In this document: piece by piece, positions 7,089 through 23,807 of the stretch
Numbering within the stretch: position 1 is the first letter of the stretch
Layout: every line of letters begins with the position of its first letter
NCBI RefSeq assembly: GCF_963667045.1
Contig: NZ_OY762934.1
Coordinates: 2,225,501-2,289,500 of the forward strand
Source of the DNA: an uncultured Cohaesibacter sp.
GTDB lineage: Bacteria; Pseudomonadota; Alphaproteobacteria; Rhizobiales; Cohaesibacteraceae
Reading direction: 5' to 3'
DNA: 64,000 nucleotides
The notes under the pieces: generated by a model
What the model was told of the DNA's origin: nothing
What the model saw: only the letters and a program-made list of their open reading frames with translations
The model's database searches: none
Program-made: the position numbers and the translations under genes

Positions 7089-8039
7089 TCAGAAGATCTG
7101 ATATTTCTCGATCAACGCCGAGAGGCGCTTTTCCTCTTCATCGGTCGGTCTGGGGCTCGGCTGTCTGCCGGTGCCGACACTGTTGTCCATGAGATATAGC
7201 AATTGCTTGATCCGAATGGGCAGATTGCCCAGAGACGACAGATCCCCATGGAGTTCCCCCAACAGCGCCTGCCATTTGGCCGCTTCCCGGTTGCTGGCGT
7301 TGGCAAACATCAGGCACAGGGTATTCAGCGTCCGGGGCAATATGTTGCCAAGATCCGACATACAGCCTGCAGCACCATGCAACAGTGCGTCCAGGATCAG
7401 GGTGTCATTGCCAGCATAGAGCGCAAAGTCACGGCTGCTGCGGACAAAGGCGAGATAGGCCAGCATCCGGTCCCGGTCCGCGCCGTTGTCCTTGATACCG
7501 ACGATATTGTCGTGCGCCGAGAGCGTGCGGACAACGTTGAGCGATAGCGCCCGCATGGTGATCGCCGGTGCGTTGTAGAGACAGATCGGCACCGACAGGC
7601 TGTCGGCGACCTTGCTGTAATGCAGGATGACGTCCTCATCGGGGCAATCGACAAAATAGGGAGCCAAAACCGTCATGCCGTCAACGCCGAGTTCGGCAAT
7701 GTCCCGCCCGACCAGGATCGCCTGATAGGTGGAGGGCATGCCGATGTTGGCCCAGACTTCCACCCGCCCGTCAGCTTCCTCGACGACCTCCGCGCACAGG
7801 CGCACCTTTTCGGCATGGGTCAGACAGGTGAAATCCCCCAGCGTATCACTCACCAGAATATTGTTGCCGAAACTGATCTGGCGGCGCACCTGATTGCGCA
7901 CGGCGGAATAGTTGATCGTATCATCCCGATTGAAGCAGGTGACGATGGAAACAAAGGGCGTCAACTGCCTTGATCCGCGGTTGGTTTCCTCAGTGCAGTC
8001 GGTCGCCTTGACAGCGATGTGTGAGAGCTCTTCCATCAT
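7089..8039 (-). CDS. DapA/NanA-family Schiff-base lyase or synthase
   Basis: Class I aldolase-fold enzyme of 316 residues in the dihydrodipicolinate synthase / N-acetylneuraminate lyase family. The catalytic pair is visible: Tyr155 in PICLYNAPAIT and the Schiff-base Lys183 in NIVGIKDNGAD. The carboxylate loop is SDTLGDF (about 64-70) rather than the GTTGE of true DapA, so a catabolic keto-acid aldolase or dehydratase is more likely than lysine synthesis. Its start overlaps the kinase stop by 4 bases (ATGA). It is the last gene of the sigma-54 operon and probably splits or dehydrates the sugar acid delivered by the upstream genes. Substrate unknown. Confidence 0.85.
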   Translation of the reverse strand: MMEELSHIAVKATDCTEETNRGSRQLTPFVSIVTCFNRDDTINYSAVRNQVRRQISFGNNILVSDTLGDFTCLTHAEKVRLCAEVVEEADGRVEVWANIGMPSTYQAILVGRDIAELGVDGMTVLAPYFVDCPDEDVILHYSKVADSLSVPICLYNAPAITMRALSLNVVRTLSAHDNIVGIKDNGADRDRMLAYLAFVRSSRDFALYAGNDTLILDALLHGAAGCMSDLGNILPRTLNTLCLMFANASNREAAKWQALLGELHGDLSSLGNLPIRIKQLLYLMDNSVGTGRQPSPRPTDEEEKRLSALIEKYQIF

Positions 8040-9325
8040 GTCGGTCTTTGCTTGGAGTGAGAAGTCAGATGGGTCTTGATATCGAGAAGGACCTGATCAT
8101 TGCCAAAGCCACCTGCCTTCGAGATAAACCAGGTCACATCCACCCGGTCGGACGTGCAGGCACCGAGAACAACGCCGGGCAACAGCTCGGCTGTGAGATC
8201 GATCGCCGGAATGCCGAGAGCGTTGGCAACCGTAATTGCCGTTTCGCCGCCGGTAGTGAAAACCGTCTTGAAAGGATAGGCCCGGCAAAGCGCAAGGGCT
8301 GCCTCGCCAACGAGCGCAGCGATGCGTGCGCCCTCCTCCTTGCTGATGCGCGGAGCGACCCCGGTGTTGTCGATGCGCAGCAAGACCGCGTCCGGTGTCG
8401 CCTTTTCCGCCTCGCATACAGTGGCGCAGAGCATGGCGATATCATCAAGGCTGGCATCCGGAGCCAGATAGAAGGTGCGATAGCCGCCCTCTGTGGCTGC
8501 CACATCGGCCTGCCGCTGGGACGATTTGGCAAGGCTGCCAACGATGGCAAGCAATGGCCCTTCAAGCTGAGGACTGTCGGTCTCGGGCTCTAAGCTTCCC
8601 CCCAGAGACAGGGAACTGGCCATGGCCCGCGCAAAACCACCCGCACCGACCGGCAGGCAATCCGCCGCCAGTGCTGCCCGTGCAAGCGTGAACAGATGGC
8701 CATCATTGGAGGCATCGGCAATGAGCATCCGGCAGCCCGCAGCGATATGTGCGTTGACAGTCCGTATCAGGGCACCATCCCCCGCCTCGATGTCAGACAA
8801 TGTCAGCCGGGCCGCTTTGAGGCGCGTCTGCTCTGCGAGCATGTCGGCGATATCGGAGCTTGCCAACGGGTGGAAGGGGTCCATGCCAATGTCGGTTTCA
8901 TGCAGGGGAATATCCGAAAGATAGATCCTGCCATCGCGAACGGTGCGCCCGGTTTCCGGCATTGCCGTGCAAATGAGCGCCGCCGCCTTTCCTGTTGCGC
9001 AGAGGGCCGCCTCGATCTCCGCACCGGGATTGCCGCGCATGGTGGAGTCAATCTTCTTGTAGAAGCGATCATAGCCCCGGAGCCGACAGGTGGCGATGAC
9101 GTCGACAACGACACCGGCAGCCTCATCCGGTGCCAGAAAGCGGGTTTCGCAATTGATCGAGATGTTGCCATCAAACAGGCTGTCGTCCTGTAGGGACGAG
9201 GCATGCAGGGAGGAAAAATCGAGGAGCAGCCTGATCTCCTTGCCAAGGCTGGAGAAATGAACCCCGGCATCCCCTGCACCGGTGAAATCATCTGCGATGA
9301 TGGCCAGTTTGCGATCCTGTTTCAC
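8036..9325 (-). CDS. Four-carbon acid sugar kinase family protein (DUF1537)
   Basis: ATP-dependent sugar-acid kinase of about 429 residues. The N-terminal motif LAIIADDFTGAGDAGVHFS and the C-terminal nucleotide domain with VFTTGGETAITVANALGI are diagnostic of the OtnK/DtnK family, which phosphorylates 3-oxo-tetronates, threonate or erythronate. I chose GTG 9325 (GTGAAACAGGATCGC) because GGGGG lies 6 bases before it; GTG codons at 9337 and 9355 are alternatives. It is coupled to the DapA-family gene. The usual partners, a PdxA2 dehydrogenase and an OtnC decarboxylase, are absent, so the pathway differs from known tetronate routes. Confidence 0.85.
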   Translation of the reverse strand: MKQDRKLAIIADDFTGAGDAGVHFSSLGKEIRLLLDFSSLHASSLQDDSLFDGNISINCETRFLAPDEAAGVVVDVIATCRLRGYDRFYKKIDSTMRGNPGAEIEAALCATGKAAALICTAMPETGRTVRDGRIYLSDIPLHETDIGMDPFHPLASSDIADMLAEQTRLKAARLTLSDIEAGDGALIRTVNAHIAAGCRMLIADASNDGHLFTLARAALAADCLPVGAGGFARAMASSLSLGGSLEPETDSPQLEGPLLAIVGSLAKSSQRQADVAATEGGYRTFYLAPDASLDDIAMLCATVCEAEKATPDAVLLRIDNTGVAPRISKEEGARIAALVGEAALALCRAYPFKTVFTTGGETAITVANALGIPAIDLTAELLPGVVLGACTSDRVDVTWFISKAGGFGNDQVLLDIKTHLTSHSKQRPT

Positions 9326-9399
9326 GATTGCCCCCACATTCCTTCCCGTTCCCACACACGCGACCAGATGACTGCCGCGTCAACTCCCTCCATTCGGCG

Positions 9400-10473
9400 T
9401 CACGGTGTCAGCGTGACATGCTTGATATAGTCGCGCAGATAGGAGTAGCTGATCTGCAACCGGCCATCGGATGTCTTGATGATCGACGGATAGGAATAGT
9501 CGCCTCGAAACGCCCCTTTCTTGTCATGGGCAGAAAGCAGATTGGCGTCTTCCTCGACCACCAATTCCTCGGTCCAGCTCTTGCCGAGATCCGTGGAACT
9601 GGCGATAATCAGCGGATTGCGTGGCACGCCCCAGATGGCGCTGTTCTCGGTCACGTCACATTCAGCCAGAAAGGCCTGCTTGTCCTGAACCCATGGCGGC
9701 ACCGGGCTTTCGCTGTCGCGGCCTGCGGCGCTGACATGATTGTAGATCATCAGCAGGCGGCCATCCGAAAACTCGAGCGCCTGAATGGAGGCGTTGTTGT
9801 TGGGAAGCGGCGTTGCTTCCGGCACCGACCAGCTGAGACCGCCGTCGTGGGAGATGGAGCGGAAGATATTGTCAGCCCGGCGGCGGCGATAGAAGGCCAC
9901 CCGGCAGCTGGGCATGATGTTCATATGAACACAGCCCTCGCTATGGGGCACCTCTTCCAGCGTCCAACTTGCACCATCATCCCCGGAGATCTGCACCAGC
10001 GAGCGGTCATCGCCAAAGGCGTTCTTCATGCTGGAGAACCAGATCGGCAGCAACAGCTTGCCATCCGGGTTGACCACCGGCGGATGGCGGATGAAGGTGC
10101 CCTCCCGGTCAAACAGCGTCTCGATAGGGCCCCAGTTTGTGCCATCATCGTCCGAGCGGCGCATGCGGACAATCGCCGTTCCCTGGTCGGTCTTCAGCTG
10201 AGCGGTATAAAGCAGCCAGATCTGGCCGGACGGATGGCGGAACAGCGCCGGGTTCTGTTCAGAGCGATCCTCGTCGTCGCTCATCTTGATCGCATCGCTC
10301 CAGGCACCCGCGACCTTGTCGAAGCGGGAGAGATAGATGCTGATGTCCGACGAGCCCTCCATGCTGCCCCCGAACCAGGTGCACAGAAGGTCGCCATTCT
10401 CCAGCTCCATGAGGTTGGAGGCATGATTGCTCAGGCAAGGGGTCGGGATGGCTCTGCTTTCAACAATTTTCAT
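9400..10473 (-). CDS. BNR-repeat sialidase-like protein
   Basis: Six-bladed propeller protein of the BNR_2/sialidase superfamily, 357 residues. Four Asp boxes (S-x-D-x-G-x-x-W) can be read at about 107-114, 163-170, 208-215 and 293-300, and the N-terminus has the family motif TWFGGSMEG. There is no signal peptide, so it probably acts in the cytoplasm on an imported substrate. ATG 10473 is chosen because AGGTGA lies 4 bases upstream; the frame extends 37 codons further with no ribosome site. It sits between the importer and the kinase in one operon, suggesting hydrolysis or lysis of a glycoside. Whether it is a true sialidase is not shown. Confidence 0.8.
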   Translation of the reverse strand: MKIVESRAIPTPCLSNHASNLMELENGDLLCTWFGGSMEGSSDISIYLSRFDKVAGAWSDAIKMSDDEDRSEQNPALFRHPSGQIWLLYTAQLKTDQGTAIVRMRRSDDDGTNWGPIETLFDREGTFIRHPPVVNPDGKLLLPIWFSSMKNAFGDDRSLVQISGDDGASWTLEEVPHSEGCVHMNIMPSCRVAFYRRRRADNIFRSISHDGGLSWSVPEATPLPNNNASIQALEFSDGRLLMIYNHVSAAGRDSESPVPPWVQDKQAFLAECDVTENSAIWGVPRNPLIIASSTDLGKSWTEELVVEEDANLLSAHDKKGAFRGDYSYPSIIKTSDGRLQISYSYLRDYIKHVTLTP

Positions 10474-10613
10474 GGTTTCACCTGGCTGGCTACTCGATTG
10501 GCGCCATCTGAGGCGATGGCGAAAAGGCATAAACGGCTCTCGGGCACGGGCGAAGGACATGGCGACCTCCGTCCGTGCGGTCATCTCGTGACAGGTCCCT
10601 TAATGGAGCCGCG

Positions 10614-11639
10614 TCAGGCTTCGGCAGGCTCCAACGTCTCTTCCAAGGCAATCTCGTCGAGGCGCAGGCAGGCGACCTGATGGCCTCCCCCGAGGTCCTC
10701 TAGCGCCGGCACAGACAGGGCACAGGCGTCCGTTGCATAGGCACAACGAGGGTGAAACCGGCAGCCGCTCGGCGGATCGATGGCGTTGGACACATCGCCC
10801 TTGAGGATCACCCGCTTGCGCTGGCGTTCAACGTCCGGATCGGCTTCCGGTACCGCCGAGAGCAGGGCCTTGGTATAGGGATGCATCGGCCGCCGGAACA
10901 GTTCCGCCTTGTCGGCAATCTCCATGATCTTGCCCAGATACATGACGGCGATCCGGTCGCTGATGTGGCGGACCACGGCCAGATCGTGGGCGATGAACAG
11001 ATAGGTCAGATTGTATTTGTCCTGAATGTCCATCAGCAGGTTGATGATCTGGGCCTGAATGGACACGTCGAGCGCCGAGATCGGTTCGTCACAGACAATG
11101 AACTCGGGATTGCAGGCAAGTGCCCGGGCAATACAGATCCTCTGTCGCTGGCCGCCGGAGAATTCATGCGGATAGCGGTTGGCCACGTTGGGGTTGAGCC
11201 CCACATCGCGGATAAGCTGGGCGATCCGGCCGGGAATTTCCTTTTCCGGATAGATCTTGTGAACCTTCATCGGCTCGGCCAAGGCTTCGCCGATGGTCAT
11301 GCGTGGGTTGAGGGTCGAATAGGGATCCTGAAAGACGATCTGCGCCTTCTTGCGCATGGCGCGCAGTTCATTCTTAGAGAGACTTGCCAGATCGACCCCT
11401 TCAAATTCGACGCTTCCGGACGTGGAGCGGTAGATCTGCAGGATGGTGTAGCCAGTTGTCGATTTGCCGCATCCGGACTCCCCTACGAGCCCCAGGGTTT
11501 CACCCTTGAAGATATCGAAACTGACATCATCGATCGCATGCACCACCGCCTTCTCACTTCCGAAAGCGCCGATCTTGATGGGGAAATATTTGACGAGGTT
11601 CGTCACCTTGACCAATGGTTGCTTGGCTGCGGCAGTCAT
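10614..11639 (-). CDS. Peptide/oligosaccharide ABC transporter ATPase (DppF/OppF type)
   Basis: Second ATPase of a family 5 (dipeptide/oligopeptide/nickel) importer, 341 residues. Walker [10 protein letters not shown], the signature FSGGQRQRI and Walker B EFIVCDEPISALD are present. The C-terminal oligo_HPY extension keeps the SGCRFHPRCAYATDAC cysteines typical of DppF/OppF. The start overlaps the stop of the first ATPase by 4 bases (ATGA), as expected for a coupled pair. The next gene (sialidase-like) begins 140 bases downstream on the same strand. Family 5 importers also carry oligosaccharides, so the substrate should be read from the operon rather than from the name. Confidence 0.93.
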   Translation of the reverse strand: MTAAAKQPLVKVTNLVKYFPIKIGAFGSEKAVVHAIDDVSFDIFKGETLGLVGESGCGKSTTGYTILQIYRSTSGSVEFEGVDLASLSKNELRAMRKKAQIVFQDPYSTLNPRMTIGEALAEPMKVHKIYPEKEIPGRIAQLIRDVGLNPNVANRYPHEFSGGQRQRICIARALACNPEFIVCDEPISALDVSIQAQIINLLMDIQDKYNLTYLFIAHDLAVVRHISDRIAVMYLGKIMEIADKAELFRRPMHPYTKALLSAVPEADPDVERQRKRVILKGDVSNAIDPPSGCRFHPRCAYATDACALSVPALEDLGGGHQVACLRLDEIALEETLEPAEA

Positions 11640-12655
11640 AGCACGCTCCCCTCTTTTGGCTCTGCATTCACCTTGGTAATATCAACCCAGCAGGCAATGC
11701 GGTGTTTGGGATGGGCACTATCGTCGGCCACCGGCTCAAGGGGAGGGATCTCCCTAGTGCAGCGCTCCTGACGGTAGGCGCAGCGGGGCGCGAACGGACA
11801 GCTTTGCGGCTCCACAAACAGGTTTGGCGGTGCTCCCGCGATGGATGGCAACCGGCTACCGGCCACGGTGTTGATGCTCGGGATCGACTTGAGCAGACCG
11901 ATGGTATAGGGGTGGCGCGGGTTTTTGTAGATCTCGTCGATCGGGGCCTCTTCCACCACGCTGCCGCCATACATCACCATGATGCGATCCACCATGCCAG
12001 CCAGCAGGCTAAGGTCGTGGGTGATCCAGATGATCGACATGTTGAGCTTTTCGCGTAGCTCCTTGACCAGTTCCACGATCTGGGCCTGGATGGTCACGTC
12101 CAGAGCCGTTGTCGGCTCGTCGGCGATCACCAGTTCCGGCTCGCCAAGCAACGCCATGGCGATCATCACGCGCTGACGCATGCCACCCGATAGCTGATGG
12201 GGATATTCATGCAAGCGATGCTCGCTGTTGGAAATCCCCACCAGATCGAGATATTTGGCCGCCTGTTTCATGGCATCGGCCCGGCTTATCTTCTTGTGAT
12301 AGATGATGCCCTCGCAAAGCTGGGCTCCGATCTTCATGAACGGATTGAGCGAGGTCATGGGGTCCTGAAAGATCATCCCGACCTTGGAGCCGCGCACCAT
12401 GTTGATCTCGCTGGCACTGGCCTTGGCCAGATCCTTGCCCTCCAGCAGCACTTCGCCTTCAGTGATCTGGGCCGCCGGCGGCAGCAGCTTGATGAGGCTC
12501 ATCATCGATACGCTCTTGCCGCATCCGGATTCACCAACCACCCCGAGCATTTCCCCCTTGTCGAGGGTGAAGGAAACGCCGTTTACTGCATAAAGATAGC
12601 CATTGCGCACCTTGAAGCGCGTGTGCAGGTTTTTCACTTCCAAAAGTTTTGTCAA
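11636..12655 (-). CDS. Peptide/oligosaccharide ABC transporter ATPase (DppD/OppD type)
   Basis: First ATPase of the importer, 339 residues if translation starts at TTG 12655 (TTGACAAAACTTTTGG), which has GGGAGGG 5 bases upstream and matches the family N-terminus [13 protein letters not shown]. The frame is open 52 codons further, into the preceding permease gene, but that extension has no family resemblance. Walker [10 protein letters not shown], signature LSGGMRQRV, Walker [14 protein letters not shown] and the C-terminal [15 protein letters not shown] cluster are present. It energises the two permeases encoded just upstream. Confidence 0.92.
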
Positions 12656-12686
12656 AGCGCCCTCCCTTTCGCTGTTCGTTGTGTCG

Positions 12687-13640
12687 TTACTTCCATTGCC
12701 GCGGGTTGAGTGCATCGTTGAGGCCGTCGCCAAGGAAACTGAAGGCGATGGTGACCAGAGCGAGCACTGCGGCAGGCGCTGCGAGAATGTGCGGATAGAG
12801 CTGCCAGACACGCAATCCGTCCGAGATCATGTTGCCCCAGCTGGGGATTGGAGGACGCACGCCGACACCGAGGAACGAGAAGGACGATTCAAACACCATG
12901 GCCTCGCCAAGAGCGGCGCTGATATAGACGATGATCGGACCGAGGGAGTTGGGAATGACATATTTCATCACGATCTTGGCGGTGGGCACACCGATGGCTT
13001 CGGCGGCCAGCACATAGTTCTTGTTGCGCACCGACATGATCTGGCCGCGAATGATGCGGGCGGCCTTGGGCCATTTGATGAGAGCCAGCGAGCCGAACAC
13101 CAGCACGAAATCGACCAGAATGGTGTTGCGGTAGAATTCGTTGCCCGTCAGCAGGAACTGCTCATCCATCCAGTTGACCAGCCGCGGTTTCATGGAGACG
13201 TTGATGACGATCACCAGCAACAGCGACGGCACCGACATGGTAATGTCAATGAGCCAGACGATGAAGCCGTCGATCTTGCCGCCGAAATAGCCACCGAGCG
13301 AGCCCATGAAGATGCCGATGATCAGGCTGAGAAAGGTGGTTGAAAAGGCGACGATCACGGCGGTTCTTGCGCCATAGATGACGCGGCTCATGATATCACG
13401 CCCCAGATCATCGGTGCCGAACCAATGGACCAGACTTGGTGCCTGATTGCGGGCATGCAAATCCTGCGACAAGAAGTCATAAGGAGTGATATAGGGCCCG
13501 AAAATGGCGATGAAGAACAGGAACACCACCAGCAGCATGCCGACCAGAGCCAGCTTGTTGGCGATCAGCCGGTCAAAGGCATCCTTGGCCAGACTGAACT
13601 GCTTCTCTTGCTGTTGCAGCTCAAGCGTATTGTCCGTCAT
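12687..13640 (-). CDS. ABC transporter permease (DppC type)
   Basis: Inner-membrane permease of 317 residues. A cytoplasmic N-terminus is followed by one helix (ALVGMLLVVFLFFIAIFGPY), a periplasmic segment with WFGTDDLGRDIMSRVIYGAR and then the BPD_transp_1 core. The EAA loop reads YVLAAEAIGVPTAKIVMKYV. Length and order match DppC/OppC. The ATG at 13640 shares a base with the stop of the upstream permease (TAATG), so the two are translationally coupled, consistent with a heterodimeric channel. Confidence 0.93.
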   Translation of the reverse strand: MTDNTLELQQQEKQFSLAKDAFDRLIANKLALVGMLLVVFLFFIAIFGPYITPYDFLSQDLHARNQAPSLVHWFGTDDLGRDIMSRVIYGARTAVIVAFSTTFLSLIIGIFMGSLGGYFGGKIDGFIVWLIDITMSVPSLLLVIVINVSMKPRLVNWMDEQFLLTGNEFYRNTILVDFVLVFGSLALIKWPKAARIIRGQIMSVRNKNYVLAAEAIGVPTAKIVMKYVIPNSLGPIIVYISAALGEAMVFESSFSFLGVGVRPPIPSWGNMISDGLRVWQLYPHILAAPAAVLALVTIAFSFLGDGLNDALNPRQWK

Positions 13641-14596
13641 TATTCGTCTCCTGTCTTTTTGGCTGCAGCACGGGGATCGAGCATCGGATAGGAAATGTCG
13701 ACCAGCAGGTTGGAGGCCATGACCACCGTCGAGAAGATCAGCACGATGGCGAGGATGACCGGATAGTCCGATGTCTTGATCGCCGTTTCGGTGAGGCGGC
13801 CAAGGCCGGGCAAGCCGAAGACCTTTTCGATGAGAATGGAGTTGTTGAGCGTGGCAATCACCAGAAGACCGATCTGGCTGACAACGGGGGTCAGAACCGG
13901 CCGCATGATATGCTTGACCACCACCTGATAGTTCGGAATGCCCTTGGCACGGGCGGTGCGCACATAATCTTCGCTGAGCACTTCAAGCACACCGGCGCGC
14001 GCCTGGCGGATGATCAGGGCCATGGGGTTCAGTCCGAGAACCAGTAGGGGGACAATCACTTTGAAACTGAACAGGCCACTCCAGCCATAGGGCACATCCA
14101 TGTCCATGACGAGCACCAGAAAGACGATGATCAACGGACCGGCAACGAACACCGGAATGCCCCAGACGATCAGCGCGAAGCCGACGATGAGGTTATCCAG
14201 CAGCTTGTTCTGGTTGAGCGCGGCGATCACACCGAGAATGATGCCGATGATGGAGAGCAGGAAAATCGCGGTGAGACCAATCTTGAGGGTCACCGGCAGC
14301 GCTGCACTGATCATCGAGTTGACGGAGCGACCGGACACCAGCGAGTTGCCGAAATTGCCGTGCGCGATATTGACGAGGTAATCCATGAACTGCACGAGGG
14401 ACGGTCGATTGAGGCCAGCAGCATCCCTGATGGCTTCCACCCTGTCCGGATCATAGGCCACATCACCAGGAGCCTGCAGGAAGATAAGCTTAATCGGGTC
14501 GCCTGCTCCAAAGAACACGAGAGCGTAGATCAACAGAAGAAGAATAAATACCGAGGGAATCCACTTCAGTAGTCGGAATAAGATGTAGCGTCCCAT
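13640..14596 (-). CDS. ABC transporter permease (DppB type)
   Basis: Inner-membrane permease of 318 residues. It starts with the DppB pattern MGRYILFRLLKWIPSVFILL, followed by the periplasmic loop RDAAGLNRPSLVQFMDYLVN. The core contains the EAA loop DYVRTARAKGIPNYQVVVKH and ends FGLPGLGRL...DYPVILAIVL...LLVDISYPMLDPR. It follows the substrate-binding protein gene after a 76-base gap with a hairpin, which may set more binding protein than permease. Confidence 0.93.
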   Translation of the reverse strand: MGRYILFRLLKWIPSVFILLLLIYALVFFGAGDPIKLIFLQAPGDVAYDPDRVEAIRDAAGLNRPSLVQFMDYLVNIAHGNFGNSLVSGRSVNSMISAALPVTLKIGLTAIFLLSIIGIILGVIAALNQNKLLDNLIVGFALIVWGIPVFVAGPLIIVFLVLVMDMDVPYGWSGLFSFKVIVPLLVLGLNPMALIIRQARAGVLEVLSEDYVRTARAKGIPNYQVVVKHIMRPVLTPVVSQIGLLVIATLNNSILIEKVFGLPGLGRLTETAIKTSDYPVILAIVLIFSTVVMASNLLVDISYPMLDPRAAAKKTGDE

Positions 14597-14627
14597 ATCA
14601 AGTCATCCTTGCACATTCGGGAAAAGA

Positions 14628-14658
14628 GGACGGGAAGTGAGACCACCACAACCCGTCC
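14628..14658 (-). terminator. Intercistronic hairpin after the binding-protein gene
   Basis: GGACGGG (14628-14634) and CCCGTCC (14652-14658) can pair, and a second small hairpin, CGTCC-TTTAC-GGACG, overlaps the stop codon of the binding-protein gene. Such elements between an SBP gene and its permeases commonly stabilise the 5' message or attenuate read-through; there is no T run, so full termination is unlikely. Confidence 0.35.
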
Positions 14659-14672
14659 AGGTTCGCCGTCCT

Positions 14673-16292
14673 TTACGGACGTTTTGCTTCGTCGATGGTC
14701 ACATTCCAAGGTTCGATGACTTGCCAGTCATCATTCTTGTCGAAATTCTGGACCCAAGGCATGGCCCATTTCGACATCACGTCGTAGTAGTAAGGAATGT
14801 AGTCCCAATCTTCACGGAAGAGACGCTGTGCTTCCTGTGCAAGCTTGATGCGGTCCGGATCCTTCACACCCTTGACGGATGCTTCTTCGAGCAGGGCATC
14901 AATCTTGTCATTTTTATAACCACCCAGCTTGTTGCGGGCGTTACCGGACTTCGAATAGATCGAACCCATCAGGTAGGAAACCGCATCGGGAACACGGGTG
15001 CCGACGTCGTCACGGAAGATCTGAACGCTCTTCTGGTCCGGGCCGGAGTAGGTTTCGATGGCCGGTTTCATTTCGATGCCCTGAATGCCAAGGATCTTGC
15101 GCCACTGCTCAGCGATATACTGGGCGGCAGCTTCATGGGTCGGGGTAGAGATGCCGACGAACATGATTTTCGGCAGGCGGCCGGCATCCTTGTATTTGGA
15201 TGCGGCAAGGGCAGCCTTGGCGGCTTCCGGATCATATGGATATTTCTTGAAGTCCGGATCGACGCCGGGAACCTTGTTGAGGATCTGGCTGGCAACCGTG
15301 AACGGCCCATCCGGGAAGGCCGCAAGGGCAAGTTCTTCCGGATTGATGGACATGATCAGGGCCTTGCGAACATTGATGTCATCCATTGGAGGTTTCTTGG
15401 CGTTGATCCAGAACTGCTGGCCCTTGGCCAGAGCCGGGCCACCAAGGAAGTCGGCACCAAGATCCTGAATGATGGTTGGCGTGATGAGCTCGGTGTGGGC
15501 ATCCATCGTGCCGCGTTTCAGCATCAGGGTTGCGGTGCTGGCGTCAGCGACGGTGGTGATGACGATTTTTTCCAGCTTCGGTTTCGGGCCGAAGAAGTTG
15601 GGGTTCGGGACGAGGGTCAGAATGCCCTGGTCGAGGTCCATGGTTTCAGGCATGAACGGACCGGACACGACCACCCCGTTCTGAGGCATCCACCAGTCGG
15701 CCTTTTCGTTGCCATTTTCATCTTCTGCCTGGGAAATCTTGACCGGAGCGATCAGGGCAGTTGCGATTTTCTGATCGAAGATCGGGTCGGCGCTTGCGAG
15801 CTTGACGGCAATCGTCGCGTCATCGGTGATTTTGAGGCCGGTCATGTCCTTGGCCTTGCCGACGACAACGTCGTTGAAGCCGTCAACGCCCCCCAGGAAC
15901 AGGTTGACGCGCGCATGCTTGGTTGCCGGGCGAGCGGACAGGTTCCAGGTACCGACCACATCCTTGGCGGTAATCTTGGAGCCATCGGACCATACGGCAT
16001 CCGGATTGACGTGCAGGGTCCAGTTGACATAGCTGTCATCGGACTCGACGCTGGACAGAACGTAAGGGGTCAGCTTGCCGTCCTTGTCGAAATACATTGG
16101 GGCAGCCCAGCTCAGTGATTGCCAGCGCGCCGCGTGTCCTCCTCCCTGAAGGGGCGACCAGTTCTGCTGCAAAACGGGGTGGGCAATGTTCAGCACCTGA
16201 CCGCCTTCGGCCGATGCCTGGCCGCTTTGCAGCGGCGTCAGCCCGAGCACTGCGAGCCCGAGCACAAGGACTTTGAAAAGATCCTTTTTCAT
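14673..16292 (-). CDS. ABC transporter substrate-binding protein, family 5
   Basis: Periplasmic binding protein of 539 residues (SBP_bac_5: DppA, OppA, NikA and oligosaccharide binders). The N-terminus MKKDLFKVLVLGLAVLGL is a Sec signal, cleaved probably after QASA (about residue 28). Internal family segments include SWAAPMYFDKDGKLTPYVL, WSDGSKITAKDVVGTWNLS and DDINVRKALIMSINPEELA. The signal has no lipobox. It is the first gene of the operon, with AGGAGA 7 bases before ATG 16292, and lies 68 bases downstream of the sigma-54 promoter. Its sequence does not reveal whether it binds peptides or saccharides; the downstream sialidase-like, kinase and lyase genes favour an acidic sugar ligand. Confidence 0.9.
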   Translation of the reverse strand: MKKDLFKVLVLGLAVLGLTPLQSGQASAEGGQVLNIAHPVLQQNWSPLQGGGHAARWQSLSWAAPMYFDKDGKLTPYVLSSVESDDSYVNWTLHVNPDAVWSDGSKITAKDVVGTWNLSARPATKHARVNLFLGGVDGFNDVVVGKAKDMTGLKITDDATIAVKLASADPIFDQKIATALIAPVKISQAEDENGNEKADWWMPQNGVVVSGPFMPETMDLDQGILTLVPNPNFFGPKPKLEKIVITTVADASTATLMLKRGTMDAHTELITPTIIQDLGADFLGGPALAKGQQFWINAKKPPMDDINVRKALIMSINPEELALAAFPDGPFTVASQILNKVPGVDPDFKKYPYDPEAAKAALAASKYKDAGRLPKIMFVGISTPTHEAAAQYIAEQWRKILGIQGIEMKPAIETYSGPDQKSVQIFRDDVGTRVPDAVSYLMGSIYSKSGNARNKLGGYKNDKIDALLEEASVKGVKDPDRIKLAQEAQRLFREDWDYIPYYYDVMSKWAMPWVQNFDKNDDWQVIEPWNVTIDEAKRP

Positions 16293-16360
16293 TCAGTTGT
16301 CTCCTCTCATTTCAACTTCGTAAAAGCAATGGCGTTCTTGGTGCGCCTTAACGAAAATTT

Positions 16361-16376
16361 TGCAATTCGCGTGCCA
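16361..16376 (-). promoter_or_regulatory. Sigma-54 (-24/-12) promoter of the importer operon
   Basis: The minus strand reads TGGCACGCGAATTGCA, a complete match to the RpoN consensus TGGCACG-N4-TTGCW. Transcription would start near 16350, giving a leader of about 60 bases before the SBP gene at 16292. The gene facing it encodes a sigma-54-dependent activator, so the regulatory logic is clear from sequence alone. Confidence 0.88.
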
Positions 16377-16463: not shown

Positions 16464-16480
16464 TGATGCGTATCGCATCA
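16464..16480. promoter_or_regulatory. Perfect inverted repeat, likely enhancer site of the sigma-54 activator
   Basis: TGATGCG-TAT-CGCATCA is a perfect 7-base inverted repeat, with a further G:C pair one position beyond each flank mismatch. It lies about 95 bases upstream of the sigma-54 promoter and 67 bases before the activator's ATG, separated from the promoter by AT-rich DNA (16381-16430) suited to bending. Placement fits an upstream activating sequence and also autoregulation. Binding is inferred. Confidence 0.6.
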
Positions 16481-16546: not shown

Positions 16547-18454
16547 ATGGTTATCGCGTTTATCGCGCCTTTCGAGCAGATCAGGCTCAAGGCGCAGAGC
16601 ATCATCGACACATCCAATTATCCGGCGAAGGCCTATCTGGGCGATTTGCATCAGGGCGTGAAGGCTGCCAAGCAGGCGCTTGATGAAGGCGCCAAGATCA
16701 TCATCAGCCGCGGTGGCACGGCGCGGATGATCCGCAAGGCGCTCAATGTGGAGGTGATAGAGGTGGAGGCCTCGGTCCAGCGCACCCTCGCCTTTGTCTT
16801 CAAGGAGACAACGGAGCAAAGCCGGGTCGGCATCGTCGGTTTTGCGCCCCTGATCAACATGGTAACGCCGATCTGCACCACACTTGCCCGCAATTACCGG
16901 TCATTCGAATTGCGCGAGAAGGAGAGCTTTCAGGAGCGGATGGACATGCTGGTACGGTGGAAGCCGGACGTGGTCATCGGTGACGCGGTGGCCTTCGAAT
17001 GGGCCAAGTCCAAGGGGCTCAATGCCTATCTGATCGAATCCAGCATGGAAACGATTGTCGATGCCTTCGAGCGGGCGATGCTGGTCTACAAGAATCTCAA
17101 TCGCTATTTCATGGCCGAAAAAAAGCTGGAAGCCGTGCTCGACTGTACGCGGGACGGCGCGGTTCTGGTCAACAGTGAAGGCCGGATCGAGGAGATCAAC
17201 AAGCAGGGCTGCACCATTCTGGCCCATCCGCGCGACGAACTGCTCGGTGCCAATATCACAGGCTTTTTCAACACGCCGGAACTGAGCAAGGCCCTGCGCA
17301 AGAAGACCCATGCCCGCAACATGATCGTCACCTGCAACGACGACAAGCTGGCGCTCGACCACATTCCGGTTTCCTCGGCGAAGCTGTCCGACAATGCTTC
17401 GGTCATTCTCTTCCAGCCGGTGCAGAAGATTCAGGACGCAGGCAACCTGATCCGCAAGAAGCTGAGCGAGAGCGGCTTCTATGCCAAATACACCTTCGAC
17501 AACATTCTCTATCACTGTCAGGAAATGAAACGGCTGGTCGAAATGGCCCAGCTCTACAGCCGTACCGCCAGCAATATCATGATCGTCGGCGAAACCGGCA
17601 CGGGCAAGGAGCTGTTCGCCCAGTCGATCCACAACGCAGGGACGCTGTCGAACGGGCCGTTTGTCGCTGTCAACTGTGCCGCCCTGCCTGGCAACCTTCT
17701 GGAGAGCGAGCTGTTCGGTTATGCGGCGGGCGCCTTCACCGGAGCGTCTCGCTCGGGCAAGATCGGCCTGTTCGAACTGGCCCACGAAGGCACGCTGTTC
17801 CTTGATGAGCTGACGGAGATGGATGTCTTCCTGCAGTCCAAGCTGTTGCGCGCGCTGCAGACGGGCGAAATCATGCGGGTCGGCGACAACAAGCTCATTC
17901 CGATCAAGGTGAGGATCATCGCCGCCACCAACAAGAACCCGTTGGAGGCCATCAGGAACGGCCTGCTGCGCGCCGACCTGTTCTACCGGCTCAACGTGCT
18001 CGACCTCAAGATCCCGCCACTACGCGACCGCAAGGGTGACCCGGAGCTGCTGTTTGCGAAGTTTCTTGAAAAGGCCTGTCGACAGCAGTCCATTCCCGTT
18101 CCGCCGCTATCGGGCAAGCTGCTCAAGGAGCTGCGCCATTATGGTTGGCCGGGCAATGTCCGCGAGCTGGAGAACTGCGCCGAGAAATTTGCCACCTTGC
18201 AGAGCCTGCATGATTTCGACATCCCGTTGCTCTCCAGCGAGCTGCAGCAGATGGGGCGCGCTTCCGCGATAGCAGACGCTGCTGTGCTTGAGGGCGAAAC
18301 CCTGGATGACATGATCGTCGCCAAGGTGAACCAGATCTTCAAGCAGGAAAACTGCAACATCACCAGAACGGCGCAGCGGCTCTCGATCGACCGCAACACC
18401 GTCAAGCGCTGGCTCGGCAAGGACAGCAAGCCACAAGGCGTGCTGCCCAACTAG
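16547..18454 (+). CDS. PrpR-type sigma-54-dependent transcriptional activator
   Basis: Enhancer-binding protein of 635 residues. Residues 1 to about 175 form a PrpR_N sensory domain ([34 protein letters not shown]). A PAS-like segment follows (about 195-300). The AAA+ domain has Walker A GETGTGKE (about 347-354), the sigma-54 contact loop GAFTGA (about 394-399), and [13 protein letters not shown]-terminal Fis-type HTH lies at about 600-630 ([20 protein letters not shown]). It diverges from the importer operon, whose promoter is of the sigma-54 type, so it almost certainly controls that operon. PrpR_N proteins sense organic acids; the effector here is probably a pathway intermediate. Confidence 0.93.
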
Positions 18455-18484: not shown

Positions 18485-19648
18485 CTAGTAGGCCTTGCCG
18501 CGGGCCGACACCGGCCAGAGGGTTTCGACCACGCCGTTGCGCACGCCCACATACCAGTCGTGGATATTGCAGGTCGGATCGCAATGGCCGGGAACAAGGC
18601 GCAGCTTTTCATTGATCCGGAGCACGCCGTTCGGATCGGCTATGGTGCCATGCTCGTCGGAGCATGCCAGATAGGTGACATCCGTCCGGCCATGCACCAC
18701 CGGCAGGCCGCTGTCGACCGACTGCACCTTGAGACCGGCGTCGACAATCGCCCGATCGGCCGTGACGTGGCTCATCACCGACGTCAGCAGGAACAGTGCA
18801 TTCTGCCATTCGCCATCATCGATGCGCTGGCCCTGTTCATCGAGGTTGAGCCCGTAGTCTGCGTCCATGAAGGCATAGGAGCCGCATTGCAGCTCATTGT
18901 AGACGCCGGAGGTGGACTCAAAATGGTAGGAGCCGGTGCCACCACCGCCAACGATATCACAGGACAGGCCCGCATCTTCCAGCGCCGCCAGACAATCCTT
19001 GACCATCGCCACCGCCACATCGACCTTGGCCTTGCGCTCGTCATAGCTGCGCAGATGCTGCATCGCGCCCTGATAGGCCTGAAGACCGGCAAAGCGCAGG
19101 CCATGCGCCCGGTCGATGGCACGCGCCAGCGCCACTACGTCCGACACCTCTGTCACACCGCAGCGACCCGCGCCGCAATCGATCTCGACAAGGCATTCGA
19201 TTTCGGTTCCATGGCGGCGGGCAGCCTCCGACAGCTCGGCCACATTGTCCAGTGCGTCGACGCAGACGATGGTCCGGGCGCCAAGCTTTGGCAGGCAGGC
19301 AAGACGATCGATCTTGTGTGGGTCACGCACCTGGTTGGACACCATCACGTCAGTGATACCACCGCGGGCAAAGACCTCCGCCTCGGAAACCTTCTGGCAA
19401 CAGATGCCACAGGCGCCGCCAAGCTCCATCTGAAGCTTTGCCACATCCAGCGACTTGTGCATCTTGCCATGCAGGCGATGACGCATGCCATGGGCCTTAA
19501 TGTAGTCGCCCATCTTGCGGATATTGCTCTCAAGGGCCTCAAGATCGAGGACAAGGCACGGGGTCTGGATGTCGTCTTCCTTCATACCGGGGCGGGCCGG
19601 GATATCAAATCCGACTTCGAGATGGTCGAGCAGGAGATGCTCATTCAT
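18485..19648 (-). CDS. bhcC: 3-hydroxy-D-aspartate aldolase (BhcC/D-threonine aldolase family)
   Basis: PLP enzyme of the alanine racemase-fold DTA/DSD family, 387 residues. It cleaves beta-hydroxy amino acids; the motif pattern closely follows Paracoccus BhcC, which splits 3-hydroxyaspartate into glycine and glyoxylate. Visible are EVGFDIPARPGM, QTPCLVLDL, the PLP-lysine region RLHGKMHKSLDVAKLQ, IDCGAGRCGV, GGGGTGSYHFES, and the C-terminal metal site PGHCDPTCNIHDWYVGVRNG. ATG 19648 matches the BhcC N-terminus but lacks a clear ribosome site; GTG 19663/19666 behind AGAAGGA is a real alternative, and the frame is open to 19711. No other bhc genes lie here. Confidence 0.82.
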   Translation of the reverse strand: MNEHLLLDHLEVGFDIPARPGMKEDDIQTPCLVLDLEALESNIRKMGDYIKAHGMRHRLHGKMHKSLDVAKLQMELGGACGICCQKVSEAEVFARGGITDVMVSNQVRDPHKIDRLACLPKLGARTIVCVDALDNVAELSEAARRHGTEIECLVEIDCGAGRCGVTEVSDVVALARAIDRAHGLRFAGLQAYQGAMQHLRSYDERKAKVDVAVAMVKDCLAALEDAGLSCDIVGGGGTGSYHFESTSGVYNELQCGSYAFMDADYGLNLDEQGQRIDDGEWQNALFLLTSVMSHVTADRAIVDAGLKVQSVDSGLPVVHGRTDVTYLACSDEHGTIADPNGVLRINEKLRLVPGHCDPTCNIHDWYVGVRNGVVETLWPVSARGKAY

Positions 19649-19714
19649 GTCTAGGGGGGTCACCACTTGGTTCCTTCTGGCTGGCTTGATTTCTTGTTTT
19701 TTACCCAGCAACAG

Positions 19715-19924: not shown

Positions 19925-21124
19925 TCAGGCGTGCTGAAGCGCGGTCATGATGCCGCGCAATTCGGCCAGTCCCTTGAGACGGCCAATTGCCGGATAACCG
20001 GGCTGTGCCTTGCGCTTCTGGTCGTCAAGGATATCGAGACCGTGATCGGGACGCAGAGGGATGGACCAATCTGCGCGACCGGCCGCCTTGCGCTTGGCTT
20101 CCTCGTCGAGAGCTGCCTGCATCAGCGCGACCATGTCGACATTGCCGCCCAGATGTTCCGACTCGTAGAAGGAGCCCTTGATGGTGTCGCTTTCCAGCAT
20201 CACGTTGCGCAGATGCAGGAAATGCACCCGATCGCCGAGCCGCTGCATCATGCCAGGCAGATCATTGTCCGGACGGGCACCCAGAGAGCCCGAGCACAGG
20301 GTGATGCCATTGGCAGGGATATCGACCGCATCCATGAGATATTTGTAGTCCGCTTCCGTGGACATGATCCGCGGCAGACCGAGCAGGCCGAAGGGCGGGT
20401 CGTCCGGATGGCAGCAGAGGCGCAGACCAAGGGTCTGGGCGACGGGCGCTACTTCCTCAAGGAAGGCAACGAAATGGGATCGCAGTTGATCCTGTGAAAT
20501 GTTGTCATATTCGGCGAGGTTGGCCCGTACCCGATCCATCGACGGCGCTTCAGCGTCACCCGGCAGGCCATAGATGATCGAACCGGCCAGTAGCGCGCGC
20601 CCGGCCTCATCCAGACGGGCAAAACGCTCACGGGCCTCATCGATCACCGCTTGAGGGAAGTCCTCATGGGCGCCCTTGCGCTCAAGGATGAACAGGTCGA
20701 AGGCGGCAAAGTCGATGAGATCGAAGCGCATGCAGGTCGCGCCCGTTGAAAGGCGGTAGGTCAGGTCCGTGCGCGTCCAGTCCAGCACCGGCATGAAGTT
20801 GTAGCAGATGATCTCGATTCCGGCAGCAGCCAGATTGCGCATGCTTTGCTTGTAATTCTCGATATGGGTGCGCCAGTTGCCCTTCTGCTTCTTGATGTCT
20901 TCGGACACAGGCAGGCTTTCGACGACTTCCCAGGCGAGACCGGACGGCGTGCCGTCCTTCTTGTGGGCAATGAGCTTTTGGCGCGCCGCAATTTCTTCAG
21001 GACTCCAGACATCGCCCGTCGGAATGTGGTGCAGGGCGCTGACGACCCCTTCCACCCCGGCTTGCAGCATGTCTTCAATTCCCACCCGGTCCTGCGGACC
21101 GAACCAACGCCATGTCTGACGCAT
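19925..21124 (-). CDS. uxuA: Mannonate dehydratase
   Basis: Converts D-mannonate to 2-keto-3-deoxygluconate in hexuronate catabolism. The 399-residue length is typical for UxuA. The start MRQTWRWFGPQDRVGIEDML and the segments GVVSALHHIPTGDVW, NYKQSMRNLAAAGI, ICYNFMPVLDWTRTDL, LCCHPDDPPFGLLGLPRI, CSGSLGARPDNDLPGM and RPDHGLDI are the recognised family signature, including the metal-binding His and Cys residues. It diverges from the gntR-TRAP-uxuB operon, so both sides probably respond to the same GntR regulator. A 2-keto-3-deoxygluconate kinase and aldolase must be encoded elsewhere. Confidence 0.96.
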   Translation of the reverse strand: MRQTWRWFGPQDRVGIEDMLQAGVEGVVSALHHIPTGDVWSPEEIAARQKLIAHKKDGTPSGLAWEVVESLPVSEDIKKQKGNWRTHIENYKQSMRNLAAAGIEIICYNFMPVLDWTRTDLTYRLSTGATCMRFDLIDFAAFDLFILERKGAHEDFPQAVIDEARERFARLDEAGRALLAGSIIYGLPGDAEAPSMDRVRANLAEYDNISQDQLRSHFVAFLEEVAPVAQTLGLRLCCHPDDPPFGLLGLPRIMSTEADYKYLMDAVDIPANGITLCSGSLGARPDNDLPGMMQRLGDRVHFLHLRNVMLESDTIKGSFYESEHLGGNVDMVALMQAALDEEAKRKAAGRADWSIPLRPDHGLDILDDQKRKAQPGYPAIGRLKGLAELRGIMTALQHA

Positions 21125-21301
21125 CTGCTGCCTCCCGTAATTATCTTCTTGGCGCCGCCTCTTTCACAGGGCCTCTCCACAAGGGTGTGAGAAATGGGGC
21201 GCATGGCCGACCGAAACCGGCTACAAGGACGCACTTTCAGACTTTGCCAAACTGCGCCACGTCGCCGTGTGATAACCAATGATTAGCACAGGAAATCCCG
21301 G

Positions 21302-21331
21302 TTGACAAGTATGGTGGTAGACCGGTATGGT
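21302..21331 (+). promoter_or_regulatory. Promoter and repeated operator-like motif of the uxu regulator operon
   Basis: TTGACA (21302-21307) and TATGGT (21326-21331), 18 bases apart, form a sigma-70-like promoter. GTATGGTGGT occurs twice (21309-21318 and 21325-21334), 16 bases apart, the second copy covering the -10. This is where an autorepressing GntR protein would bind; the gntR start codon is 24 bases downstream behind TTGGAGGA. Confidence 0.6.
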
Positions 21332-21354
21332 GGTTAACTATTGGAGGATAGCAT

Positions 21355-22059
21355 ATGTCACTGCTTGATGGGTTGGAGCAACGGGAAATAGATCTGCGCT
21401 TGCCGGTGGCACCGCAGATTCACTCGATCCTGCGCCAACAGATCATTCGCAATCAGCTCACGCCGGGCAGCCGCATGTCGGAGGCCGAGTGGGCCTCTGC
21501 CTTTGCCGTTTCCCGCCAGCCGGTCCGGGAAGCCTTCATCAAGCTGGCCAACGAGGGCCTGCTCGACATCCTGCCCAACCGGGGCAGCTTTGTGAAAAAG
21601 ATCTCCCCCAACGCCGTGATGGATGCCCGCTTCGTACGCGAGGCCATCGAGGCCGACATCGTGCGGCTGGTTGCCGAAGAGCATGACGAGGCGGTGGACC
21701 GAGAGCTGGCAAGGCAGATCGAGCATCAGAGGAAAGCGGTCGAAACGGAAGACCCGGATGCCTTTATCCTGCTGGACGAACTGTTCCATCAGACCTTGGC
21801 CGAGGCTGCCCGCAAGACGGGAGCATGGGCCGTGGTGCAGAGCCAGAAGGCCCAGATGGATCGCGTCCGCTATCTCTCCCTGGTGGATCACAACACCGCG
21901 AAATTGCTGGAGCAGCACAGTGCCATCGTCTCGGCGATTGCTGCCCACGATACCGCAGCAGCGGAGGCTGCCATGCGGTCCCATTTGAGGAGAATCCTCA
22001 AGGATCTTCCTCAAATTGCCAAAGAAAAACCTGAACTGTTTGAACCCGGGGACGGTTGA
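21355..22059 (+). CDS. GntR-family regulator, FadR/FCD subfamily
   Basis: Transcriptional regulator of 234 residues. The N-terminal winged helix (about 20-85) includes LRQQIIRNQLTPGSRMSEAE, then AFAVSRQPVREAFIKLANEG and LLDILPNRGSFV. The C-terminal FCD ligand domain (about 95-220) shows DARFVREAIEADIV and LFHQTLAEAARKTG, with metal-ligand His residues. It heads an operon with a TRAP transporter and uxuB, and uxuA diverges from it, so it most likely represses hexuronate genes and is relieved by fructuronate, mannonate or a related acid, as UxuR/ExuR-type FCD proteins are. The promoter carries a duplicated motif over the -10. Confidence 0.9.
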   Translation: MSLLDGLEQREIDLRLPVAPQIHSILRQQIIRNQLTPGSRMSEAEWASAFAVSRQPVREAFIKLANEGLLDILPNRGSFVKKISPNAVMDARFVREAIEADIVRLVAEEHDEAVDRELARQIEHQRKAVETEDPDAFILLDELFHQTLAEAARKTGAWAVVQSQKAQMDRVRYLSLVDHNTAKLLEQHSAIVSAIAAHDTAAAEAAMRSHLRRILKDLPQIAKEKPELFEPGDG

Positions 22060-22088
22060 TCCCCATCGCCAATGACTGGGAGGAATAG

Positions 22089-23069: not shown

Positions 23070-23084
23070 TGGTCTGACTGATAA

Positions 23085-23116
23085 GGGCGGTCGCCGGGGG
23101 TTCCCTGCGACCGCCC
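23085..23116 (+). terminator. Intercistronic hairpin between dctP and dctQ
   Basis: A perfect 10-base stem, GGGCGGTCGC (23085-23094) with GCGACCGCCC (23107-23116), starts 15 bases after the dctP stop, with no T run. It probably stabilises the dctP message or reduces read-through, so that binding protein is made in excess over permease. Confidence 0.6.
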
Positions 23117-23273
23117 GATGTCGCAGCCATCGTCTCAAGCGCATTTCCTGCCTGTCCAAGACCGAGTCCGAGTCCAAGACCGGGACCGGAGTGAGGCTGC
23201 GCATTCCAACGACAATCCACGCCATTTCTCGACGATCCCCCACCGGAGGAATGGGCAAACTAGCGAGGCTGTC

Positions 23274-23804: not shown

Positions 23805-23807
23805 CCC

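What the first reader, a model, noticed from the sequence alone, without database searches (positions are those of the whole stretch)
7089..16376. Sigma-54-driven import and degradation operon for an unknown (possibly ulosonate-like) compound
Eight minus-strand genes form one unit: family 5 SBP, two permeases, two ATPases, a cytoplasmic four-Asp-box sialidase-fold protein, a DUF1537 sugar-acid kinase, and a DapA/NanA-family lyase. The last two overlap by ATGA. A near-perfect sigma-54 promoter faces a PrpR-type activator. The usual DUF1537 partners (PdxA2, OtnC) are missing, and a signal-less sialidase-like protein next to a NanA-family lyase suggests cleavage of an imported acidic glycoside followed by aldol cleavage or phosphorylation. 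I know of no described pathway with this set.
Basis: partly seen in the sequence, partly recalled or inferred. Interest (0 to 1): 0.7.

Follow-up and report, generated by a model that had tools for sequence, protein, structure and literature searches.

The report
Importer operon for a plant/algal ulosonic acid

Summary
In detail: SBP5-DppBCDF-BNR-DUF1537-DapA form one minus-strand unit behind a sigma-54-type promoter kept in 11 of 11 Cohaesibacter BNR loci. Elsewhere (Rhizobium, Tropicimonas, Klebsiella, Gilliamella; 1043 of 5426 complete E. coli genomes) the BNR gene sits with DapA, Fe-ADH, DUF1537 and PdxA and varying importers. In Klebsiella the kinase and PdxA pass NCBIfam's D-threonate cut-offs; the window's and cluster-2 copies do not. 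A lyase plus an alcohol dehydrogenase yielding D-threonate points to 3-deoxy-D-lyxo-heptulosarate (DHA): aldol cleavage to pyruvate + D-threuronate, reduction to D-threonate, phosphorylation, oxidative decarboxylation to DHAP. Only the D-lyxo and D-xylo isomers fit. BNR is sialidase-folded but not a canonical sialidase: Arg1 and the catalytic Glu align with His; two Arg and Tyr remain. Substrate and all reactions are inferred, untested. My searches found no paper describing DHA catabolism.

The parts
7089..8039 (-). DapA/NanA-family lyase (DapA1). Lys of GIKD and Tyr of LYN.P kept (recalled as catalytic in DapA); GT(T/N)G(E/D) motif changed to DTLGD
   Evidence: PF00701 1.7e-48; motif alignment
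8036..9355 (-). DUF1537 four-carbon acid sugar kinase (start codon uncertain), overlaps DapA1 by 4 bases
   Evidence: PF07005/PF17042; best NCBIfam model D-threonate kinase, 227.5 bits, cut-off 450 not reached
9400..10473 (-). Cytoplasmic BNR_2 sialidase-fold protein, 357 aa (ATG at 10473; longest ORF starts at 10584); relatives are called COG4692 in PMC12928451
   Evidence: PF13088 3.4e-61; AlphaFold2 pLDDT 84.6; Foldseek top hits sialidases, E 2.2e-17
10614..11639 (-). DppF-type ABC ATPase
   Evidence: PF00005/PF08352; 64% to Rhizobium cluster
11636..12655 (-). DppD-type ABC ATPase (start inferred from the 339-aa relatives; longest ORF 11636-12811)
12687..13640 (-). DppC-type permease
   Evidence: PF00528/PF12911
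13640..14596 (-). DppB-type permease
   Evidence: PF00528
14673..16292 (-). Family 5 solute-binding protein; 54% identical to the SBP of the Rhizobium pRL9 cluster
   Evidence: PF00496 3.2e-53
16361..16376 (-). Sigma-54 -24/-12 type site TGGCACGCGAATTGCA
   Evidence: exact match; TGGCAYN5TTGC in 11 of 11 loci
16464..16480 (.). Inverted repeat TGATGCGATACGCATCA, candidate activator site about 90 bp upstream of the -24 box
   Evidence: TGATGC-N5-GCATC in 11 of 11 loci, read from the alignment
16547..18454 (+). PrpR_N-PAS-AAA+ sigma-54 activator, divergent
   Evidence: PF06506, PF00158; next to the operon in all 11 loci

Best explanation
[quoted passage not shown] The SBP5/DppBCDF system imports it when the PrpR-type activator opens the sigma-54 promoter. 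The cytoplasmic BNR protein releases or opens the ulosonate (step least certain). A DapA-family aldolase cleaves it to pyruvate + D-threuronate. The Fe-ADH (second locus) reduces the aldehyde to D-threonate. A DUF1537 kinase makes 4-phospho-D-threonate. PdxA (second locus) oxidises and decarboxylates it to DHAP + CO2. Shown here: gene content, conservation, promoter-like site, genomic coupling of the two loci, predicted fold. Inferred: every reaction, the order and the substrate. The D-threonate end is the firmest step, the BNR reaction the weakest.
For: Core set: Fe-ADH orthologs (E<=1e-100) in 11 of 398 sampled genomes; in the stretches fetched around them DapA and PdxA are found in 11 of 11 and DUF1537 in 10 of 11 (the G043 contig ends first). 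BNR relatives are in 11 of 398; 7 genomes have both against 0.3 expected (hypergeometric 3.5e-10; without the window's own genome 6, 8e-9; not corrected for relatedness). In the genus, 11 of 11 BNR genomes have the cluster-2 Fe-ADH against 3 of 7 BNR-less ones. D-threonate: Klebsiella kinase 507.8 bits (cut-off 450) and PdxA 667.3 (cut-off 583); RefSeq gives the same names in E. coli Nissle 1917. Stereochemistry: of 8 isomers of 3-deoxy-hept-2-ulosarate only D-lyxo (=DHA) and D-xylo give D-threonate. Lyases of the set score second or third against a C7-dioate aldolase model and the cluster-2 Fe-ADH third against 4-hydroxybutyrate dehydrogenase, all below cut-off. SLC13 and TTT importers (recalled as di/tricarboxylate carriers) fit a diacid. 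YhcH/NanQ-like proteins occur in 9 of 22 non-Cohaesibacter BNR loci. DHA occurs in RG-II and in scales/theca of green algae, many marine.
Against: No enzyme was assayed. The window's own DapA1 (DTLGD) and kinase are divergent from the cluster-2 copies (43% and 27% identity) and may act on a different substrate. Window and cluster-2 proteins do not reach the D-threonate cut-offs. DapA subtypes in the clusters are very diverse (down to about 21-22% to the window's). BNR lacks sialidase Arg1 and Glu, while the GH143 DHA hydrolase is reported to keep a Tyr-Glu pair. Several importers (SSS, TRAP-TAXI) usually carry monomers (recalled), which leaves BNR's role open. Pantoea L019 and G111 have BNR + SSS + SDR without the core beside it; in G111 the core is on another contig, in Pantoea I did not look.
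Confidence: 0.48

Rival explanations
1. The core pathway exists as described, but the window operon serves a related, different ulosonate (for example another stereoisomer or the 5-O-methyl-Kdo of algal scales), handled by DapA1 and the divergent kinase.
For: DTLGD/DTQGD motif seen only in the Cohaesibacter DapA1 copies among 22 sequences aligned; DapA1 and its kinase are 43% and 27% identical to the cluster-2 copies; both loci are kept together in 11 of 11 genomes, which is odd for pure duplicates; algal scales hold DHA together with 5-O-methyl-Kdo.
Against: The window BNR is 69% identical to the Tropicimonas BNR, whose cluster holds cluster-2-type DapA, Fe-ADH and PdxA at 72-82% identity, so the BNR probably feeds that chemistry.
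Confidence: 0.25
2. The substrate is a conjugate of D-threonate: BNR frees D-threonate directly, and the lyase and Fe-ADH handle the other half.
For: The kinase/PdxA pair needs only D-threonate; BNR sits with them in 11 of 12 named loci.
Against: In 5 sampled genomes the Fe-ADH locus has DapA, DUF1537 and PdxA without a BNR beside it; four of these genomes have no BNR match at E<=1e-30, so D-threonate must arise there without it.
Confidence: 0.1
3. Sialic acid, Kdo or another known ulosonate, by a NanA-like route.
For: Sialidase fold, NanA-superfamily lyase, NanQ-like YhcH.
Against: Aldol cleavage of Kdo gives D-arabinose and of Neu5Ac gives ManNAc (recalled); neither leads to D-threonate, and I saw no recurring arabinose or ManNAc genes in the annotated clusters looked at.
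Confidence: 0.08
4. One reading: the eight-gene operon alone is a complete pathway.
For: Compact conserved operon.
Against: It has no evident route from the C4 product to central metabolism, and the missing genes sit in a co-inherited second locus.
Confidence: 0.07

Closest known systems
D-threonate catabolism (DtnK/DUF1537 + PdxA2; Zhang 2016, not held, known here through passages of PMC10079672 and recall)
   Same: Kinase and 4-phosphate dehydrogenase of the same families; equivalog-level matches in the Klebsiella cluster
   Different: Here linked to a DapA-family lyase and Fe-ADH, so D-threonate is probably an intermediate, not the substrate
D-glucarate/galactarate pathway (GarL aldolase, GarR reductase, GarK kinase; recalled)
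   Same: Same proposed logic: keto-deoxy diacid cleaved to pyruvate + semialdehyde, reduced, phosphorylated
   Different: Six-carbon substrate and unrelated enzyme families (recalled)
GH143 DHA hydrolase BT1020 and GH33 sialidases
   Same: Beta-propeller of sialidase type; Tyr and two Arg kept
   Different: Cytoplasmic; Arg1 and Glu both align with His; GH143 is reported to keep the Tyr-Glu pair (PMC6811678 passage)
E. coli BEN2908 genomic region GR6 (PMC12928451)
   Same: Same gene set, already listed there with its partial S. meliloti counterpart (passages)
   Different: In the passages I read, that paper proposes no substrate or pathway; it links the kinase/PdxA pair to PLP synthesis

Membership tests
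GH33 sialidase | Sialidase-type beta-propeller fold | tested here: met
   AlphaFold2 model pLDDT 84.6; Foldseek top hits sialidases, E 2.2e-17, TM 0.71; blade number not counted
GH33 sialidase | Arg triad | tested here: not met
   Arg1 aligns with invariant His17; Arg2 = R196 and Arg3 = R285 kept, by profile alignment with one GH33 protein
GH33 sialidase | Tyr-Glu nucleophile pair | tested here: not met
   Tyr328 kept; Glu aligns with invariant His183 (one residue off when the window, which has a 3-residue deletion there, leads the alignment)
GH143 DHA hydrolase | Tyr-Glu pair (and five-bladed propeller, not tested) | tested here: not met
   Glu replaced; sequence match to 5mqr only E 0.0096 over 45 residues
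D-threonate kinase (NF047819) | Curated score cut-off 450 bits | tested here: not met
   Window 227.5, cluster 2 112.6; Klebsiella homolog 507.8 passes. Best-scoring model in all three
D-threonate-4-phosphate dehydrogenase (NF002891) | Curated score cut-off 583 bits | tested here: not met
   Cluster-2 PdxA 291.1 (passes general PdxA TIGR00557, 347.7 vs 290.35); Klebsiella homolog 667.3 passes
DapA/NanA class I aldolase superfamily | Schiff-base Lys, Tyr, GTTGE-type motif (recalled) | tested here: inconclusive
   Lys and Tyr kept, motif altered to DTLGD in the window copy; cluster-2 copy has GTNGD
Nan (sialic acid) pathway | NanK/NanE/NagA partners in the cluster | tested here: not met
   Not seen in the annotated clusters examined; in E. 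coli Nissle the nag genes are flanking neighbours only. Not searched genome-wide
Sigma-54 promoter | -24/-12 elements with a divergent activator gene | tested here: met
   expression itself not testable here

The most novel reading that the evidence does not exclude
COG4692/BNR proteins of these clusters are a new family of cytoplasmic ulosonic-acid (DHA) glycosidases that use a sialidase fold with His in place of Arg1 and His in place of the catalytic Glu, and they feed the first described complete bacterial pathway for DHA, present in about a fifth of complete E. coli genomes.
Probability: 0.28. Interest if true: 0.78.

Novelty: new variant of a known kind. Interest (0 to 1): 0.6.

Why it matters
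DHA is a component sugar of the pectin RG-II and of the scales and theca of green algae, and I found no paper describing how bacteria metabolise it once freed. A gene set carried by rhizobia, marine alphaproteobacteria, bee-gut Gilliamella, Klebsiella and 1043 of 5426 complete E. coli genomes would give that sugar a fate. It would give function to proteins now annotated 'exo-alpha-sialidase' and 'dihydrodipicolinate synthase family', and a solute to a rhizosphere-induced Rhizobium transporter. It is testable in E. coli Nissle 1917.

Tried and rejected
Considered and rejected: a plain sialic-acid operon (no partners seen; wrong product for DUF1537/PdxA); BNR as a canonical sialidase; a first, by-eye residue mapping of BNR that put the catalytic Glu and Arg2 one blade too late, replaced by the profile alignment; the sister BNR_2 clade as functional evidence (22-28% identity; no core genes found nearby in 5 of 5 loci, TctC in 2 of 5; several have an N-terminal hydrophobic segment by eye, L118 does not); a conserved hairpin in the DppF-BNR gap (consensus fold only -2.2 kcal/mol); sequence search of the SBP against solved structures (the 31 hits are mostly oligo- and dipeptide-binding proteins, so no ligand hint).

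Against the reading: the window and cluster-2 enzymes miss the D-threonate cut-offs, and DapA1 has an unusual motif. The bit-score thresholds give DapA in only 9 of 12 and 7 of 10 BNR loci; annotation or weaker hits add the Rhizobium copies. DUF1537 counted as present includes broken copies in L020 (two frames) and L004 (fragments). The named loci were picked by hand for diversity (7 of 310 plasmid records, 4 of 6 loci, one E. coli), not at random; the 398-genome sample was drawn by the tool. Rows dropped: Klebsiella L033 (BNR in two pieces) was left out of the 23-sequence conservation count.

Literature: PMC12928451, PMC12168206, PMC10762512, PMC6353982, PMC3333776, PMC7105596, PMC10079672, PMC11770544, PMC12282258 and PMC6811678 seen as found passages only; PMC6421345 searched, no match; others as search listings. 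Zhang 2016 (PMC4961189) and Ndeh 2017 (PMC5388186) are not held and are recalled.
Full report
WHAT IS THERE. The sigma-54-type site TGGCACGCGAATTGCA at 16361-16376 is the only exact match in the window, but near-matches occur at chance rate; what makes it convincing is conservation. In the window and ten other Cohaesibacter loci, TGGCAYN5TTGC (C in 8, T in 3) and an inverted repeat TGATGC-N5-GCATC about 90 bp upstream of it are kept in 11 of 11, read from the alignment. Gene order is the same in all 11, and all eight genes look to be under purifying selection (omega at most 0.33).

THE HOST. The closest named relatives found are Cohaesibacter haloalkalitolerans (BNR 95%) and C. marisflavi (87%); the window lies in a 5.24 Mb single-contig genome.

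THE MISSING HALF. With Tropicimonas Fe-ADH and PdxA as queries, the window's own genome gave 72% matches at C1:359349-360458 and C1:352961-353932. They belong to a second locus: DUF1537, GntR regulator, PdxA, a D-2-hydroxyacid dehydrogenase, DapA, TctA, TctC and Fe-ADH (GntR and Tct names by eye). In the genus, 11 of 18 genomes have the BNR and all 11 have the cluster-2 Fe-ADH; 3 of the 7 without BNR have it (one-sided 0.011, not corrected for relatedness). The five cluster-2 markers DapA, DUF1537, PdxA, TctC and Fe-ADH are all present in 8 of 8 Fe-ADH loci examined, the window's own included; the order differs in two (L080, L081).

THE CONSERVED SET. BNR relatives occur in 310 plasmid records and in 11 of 398 genomes sampled over the phylum. 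In 12 named non-Cohaesibacter loci, picked by hand, Fe-ADH, PdxA and DUF1537 are each near BNR in 11 (DUF1537 broken in L004 and L020; DapA 9 of 12 by threshold, with both Rhizobium copies annotated besides). In the 10 sampled genomes other than our own, Fe-ADH and PdxA are near BNR in 9 of 10, DUF1537 in 7 of 10 and DapA in 7 of 10 by threshold; weaker hits add the DapA of G253 and G107. In E. coli, 1043 of 5426 complete genomes hold at least 80% of the 6.9-kb block PdxA-dtnK-FeADH-DapA-TerC-BNR-YhcH of strain Nissle 1917 (one more genome holds 28%). Importers differ: Dpp in Rhizobium, SSS in Gilliamella, Klebsiella and Methylobacterium, TRAP-TAXI in Tropicimonas and Competibacteraceae, another ABC system in Azospirillum, SLC13 in E. 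coli (in unannotated loci named by eye and similarity).

Searched the other way, Fe-ADH orthologs occur in 11 of 398 genomes, with DapA and PdxA found near by in 11 of 11 and DUF1537 in 10 of 11, including five loci without an adjacent BNR. Seven genomes have both BNR and this Fe-ADH (0.3 expected; six without our own, P 8e-9). In G111, as in Cohaesibacter, BNR and the core lie apart. So the pathway core is DapA + Fe-ADH + DUF1537 + PdxA and the BNR is a linked, optional upstream part.

WHY D-THREONATE. In the Klebsiella cluster the kinase scores 507.8 bits against the D-threonate kinase model (cut-off 450) and PdxA 667.3 against D-threonate-4-phosphate dehydrogenase (cut-off 583); RefSeq gives the same names in E. 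coli Nissle 1917. [quoted passage not shown] The window and cluster-2 copies stay below the cut-offs, though D-threonate kinase is the best-scoring model for both kinases.

WHY DHA. A pyruvate-type aldolase plus an alcohol dehydrogenase that together give a four-carbon aldonic acid imply an aldehyde acid as intermediate: aldol cleavage of a C7 3-deoxy-2-keto diacid gives pyruvate + a tetruronate, whose reduction gives a tetronate. Enumeration of the eight stereoisomers shows that only 3-deoxy-D-lyxo and 3-deoxy-D-xylo-hept-2-ulosarate give D-threonate. The D-lyxo isomer is DHA, in plants found exclusively in RG-II (PMC12168206, passage) and also in prasinophyte scales and Tetraselmis theca (PMC10762512, passage), which fits a marine host. 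Weak supporting signs: lyases of the set score second or third against a C7-dioate aldolase model, and the cluster-2 Fe-ADH third against 4-hydroxybutyrate dehydrogenase, all below cut-off; TTT and SLC13 importers are usually di/tricarboxylate carriers (recalled); YhcH proteins akin to N-acetylneuraminate anomerase (109.9 bits, cut-off 160) occur in 9 of 22 non-Cohaesibacter loci.

RHIZOBIUM LINK. The Dpp importer of the R. johnstonii 3841 pRL9 cluster is orthologous to the window's (SBP 54%, DppB 60%, DppC 60%, DppD 55%, DppF 64%). PMC7105596 names pRL90097 as pdxA2 (passage); [quoted passage not shown] The mapping is by gene order, not by a lookup of old locus tags.

THE BNR PROTEIN. The AlphaFold2 model (pLDDT 84.6) matches sialidases in nearly all of the 50 best PDB rows (best E 2.2e-17). 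Over 23 sequences, profile alignment to one GH33 sialidase puts Arg1 at invariant His17, Glu at invariant His183, Arg2 at R196, Arg3 at R285 and the nucleophile at Tyr328. With the window leading the alignment the Glu and Arg2 columns fall one residue earlier, because the window has a 3-residue deletion there; with the Rhizobium protein leading they fall on the His and Arg. It is therefore not a canonical sialidase, and by a reported feature (Tyr-Glu pair, PMC6811678 passage) not a GH143 either. It has no signal peptide by eye. I favour hydrolysis or ring-opening of a DHA conjugate inside the cell; this is the weakest step.

THE WINDOW'S OWN LYASE AND KINASE. DapA1 keeps Lys and Tyr but has DTLGD (DTQGD in C. 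marisflavi) where the others have GT(T/N)G(E/D); it is 43% identical to DapA2, and the two kinases are 27% identical. They may serve a sister substrate; this is my main rival.

NOVELTY. Searches for DUF1537/PdxA2/sialidase, heptulosaric acid, heptulosarate with threonate, D-threonate or PdxA2 (36), COG4692 sets, PF13088/DapA, DHA with aldolase and the annotation names found one paper that lists the gene set (PMC12928451, E. coli BEN2908, with the S. meliloti parallel) and, in the passages read, no pathway. The library lacks most subscription journals, so absence there is not proof. The parts are known families; the pathway they form seems undescribed.

Noticed in passing
window 18485-19711: The neighbour of the activator gene passes the NCBIfam cut-off for 3-hydroxy-D-aspartate aldolase BhcC (738 vs 690). 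It sits next to the activator in the window and 8 of 10 relatives (not found in L070 and L071). I did not search for the other bhc genes.
   Followed up: partly
window 19925-26696: UxuA-like, GntR, DctPQM TRAP and UxuB-like genes (names by eye) form a hexuronate-type cluster next door; a UxuB relative also flanks cluster 2 in G401 and G412.
   Followed up: partly
window about 10501-10521: GC-rich hairpin in the DppF-BNR gap; strong hairpins are predicted near the same place in several relatives, but the consensus fold is weak.
   Followed up: partly
L031 4618-5583: Transposase-like ORF (by eye) at the edge of cluster 2 in the window's own genome.
   Followed up: no
L146 5918-6676: A TerC family gene sits between DapA and BNR in E. 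coli Nissle 1917; the cluster lies between glnS and nagE.
   Followed up: no
L004, L005, L019, L021, L022, L032, L034-L037, L039: An SDR (53-60% identical to the Tropicimonas one) travels with BNR in SSS, TRAP and ABC clusters, even where the core is not adjacent; its role is unexplained.
   Followed up: partly
L114, L116: Members of a sister BNR_2 clade (22-28% identical) have an N-terminal hydrophobic segment and lie next to membrane-protein genes resembling ArnT and LTA synthase by eye.
   Followed up: partly
L033: The BNR gene of this Klebsiella record is broken into two pieces, and the 5.4 Mb record is labelled a plasmid.
   Followed up: no
L020 1955-3017: The DUF1537 gene of the R. beringeri cluster matches in two overlapping pieces and has no annotated CDS, so it looks broken.
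   Followed up: no
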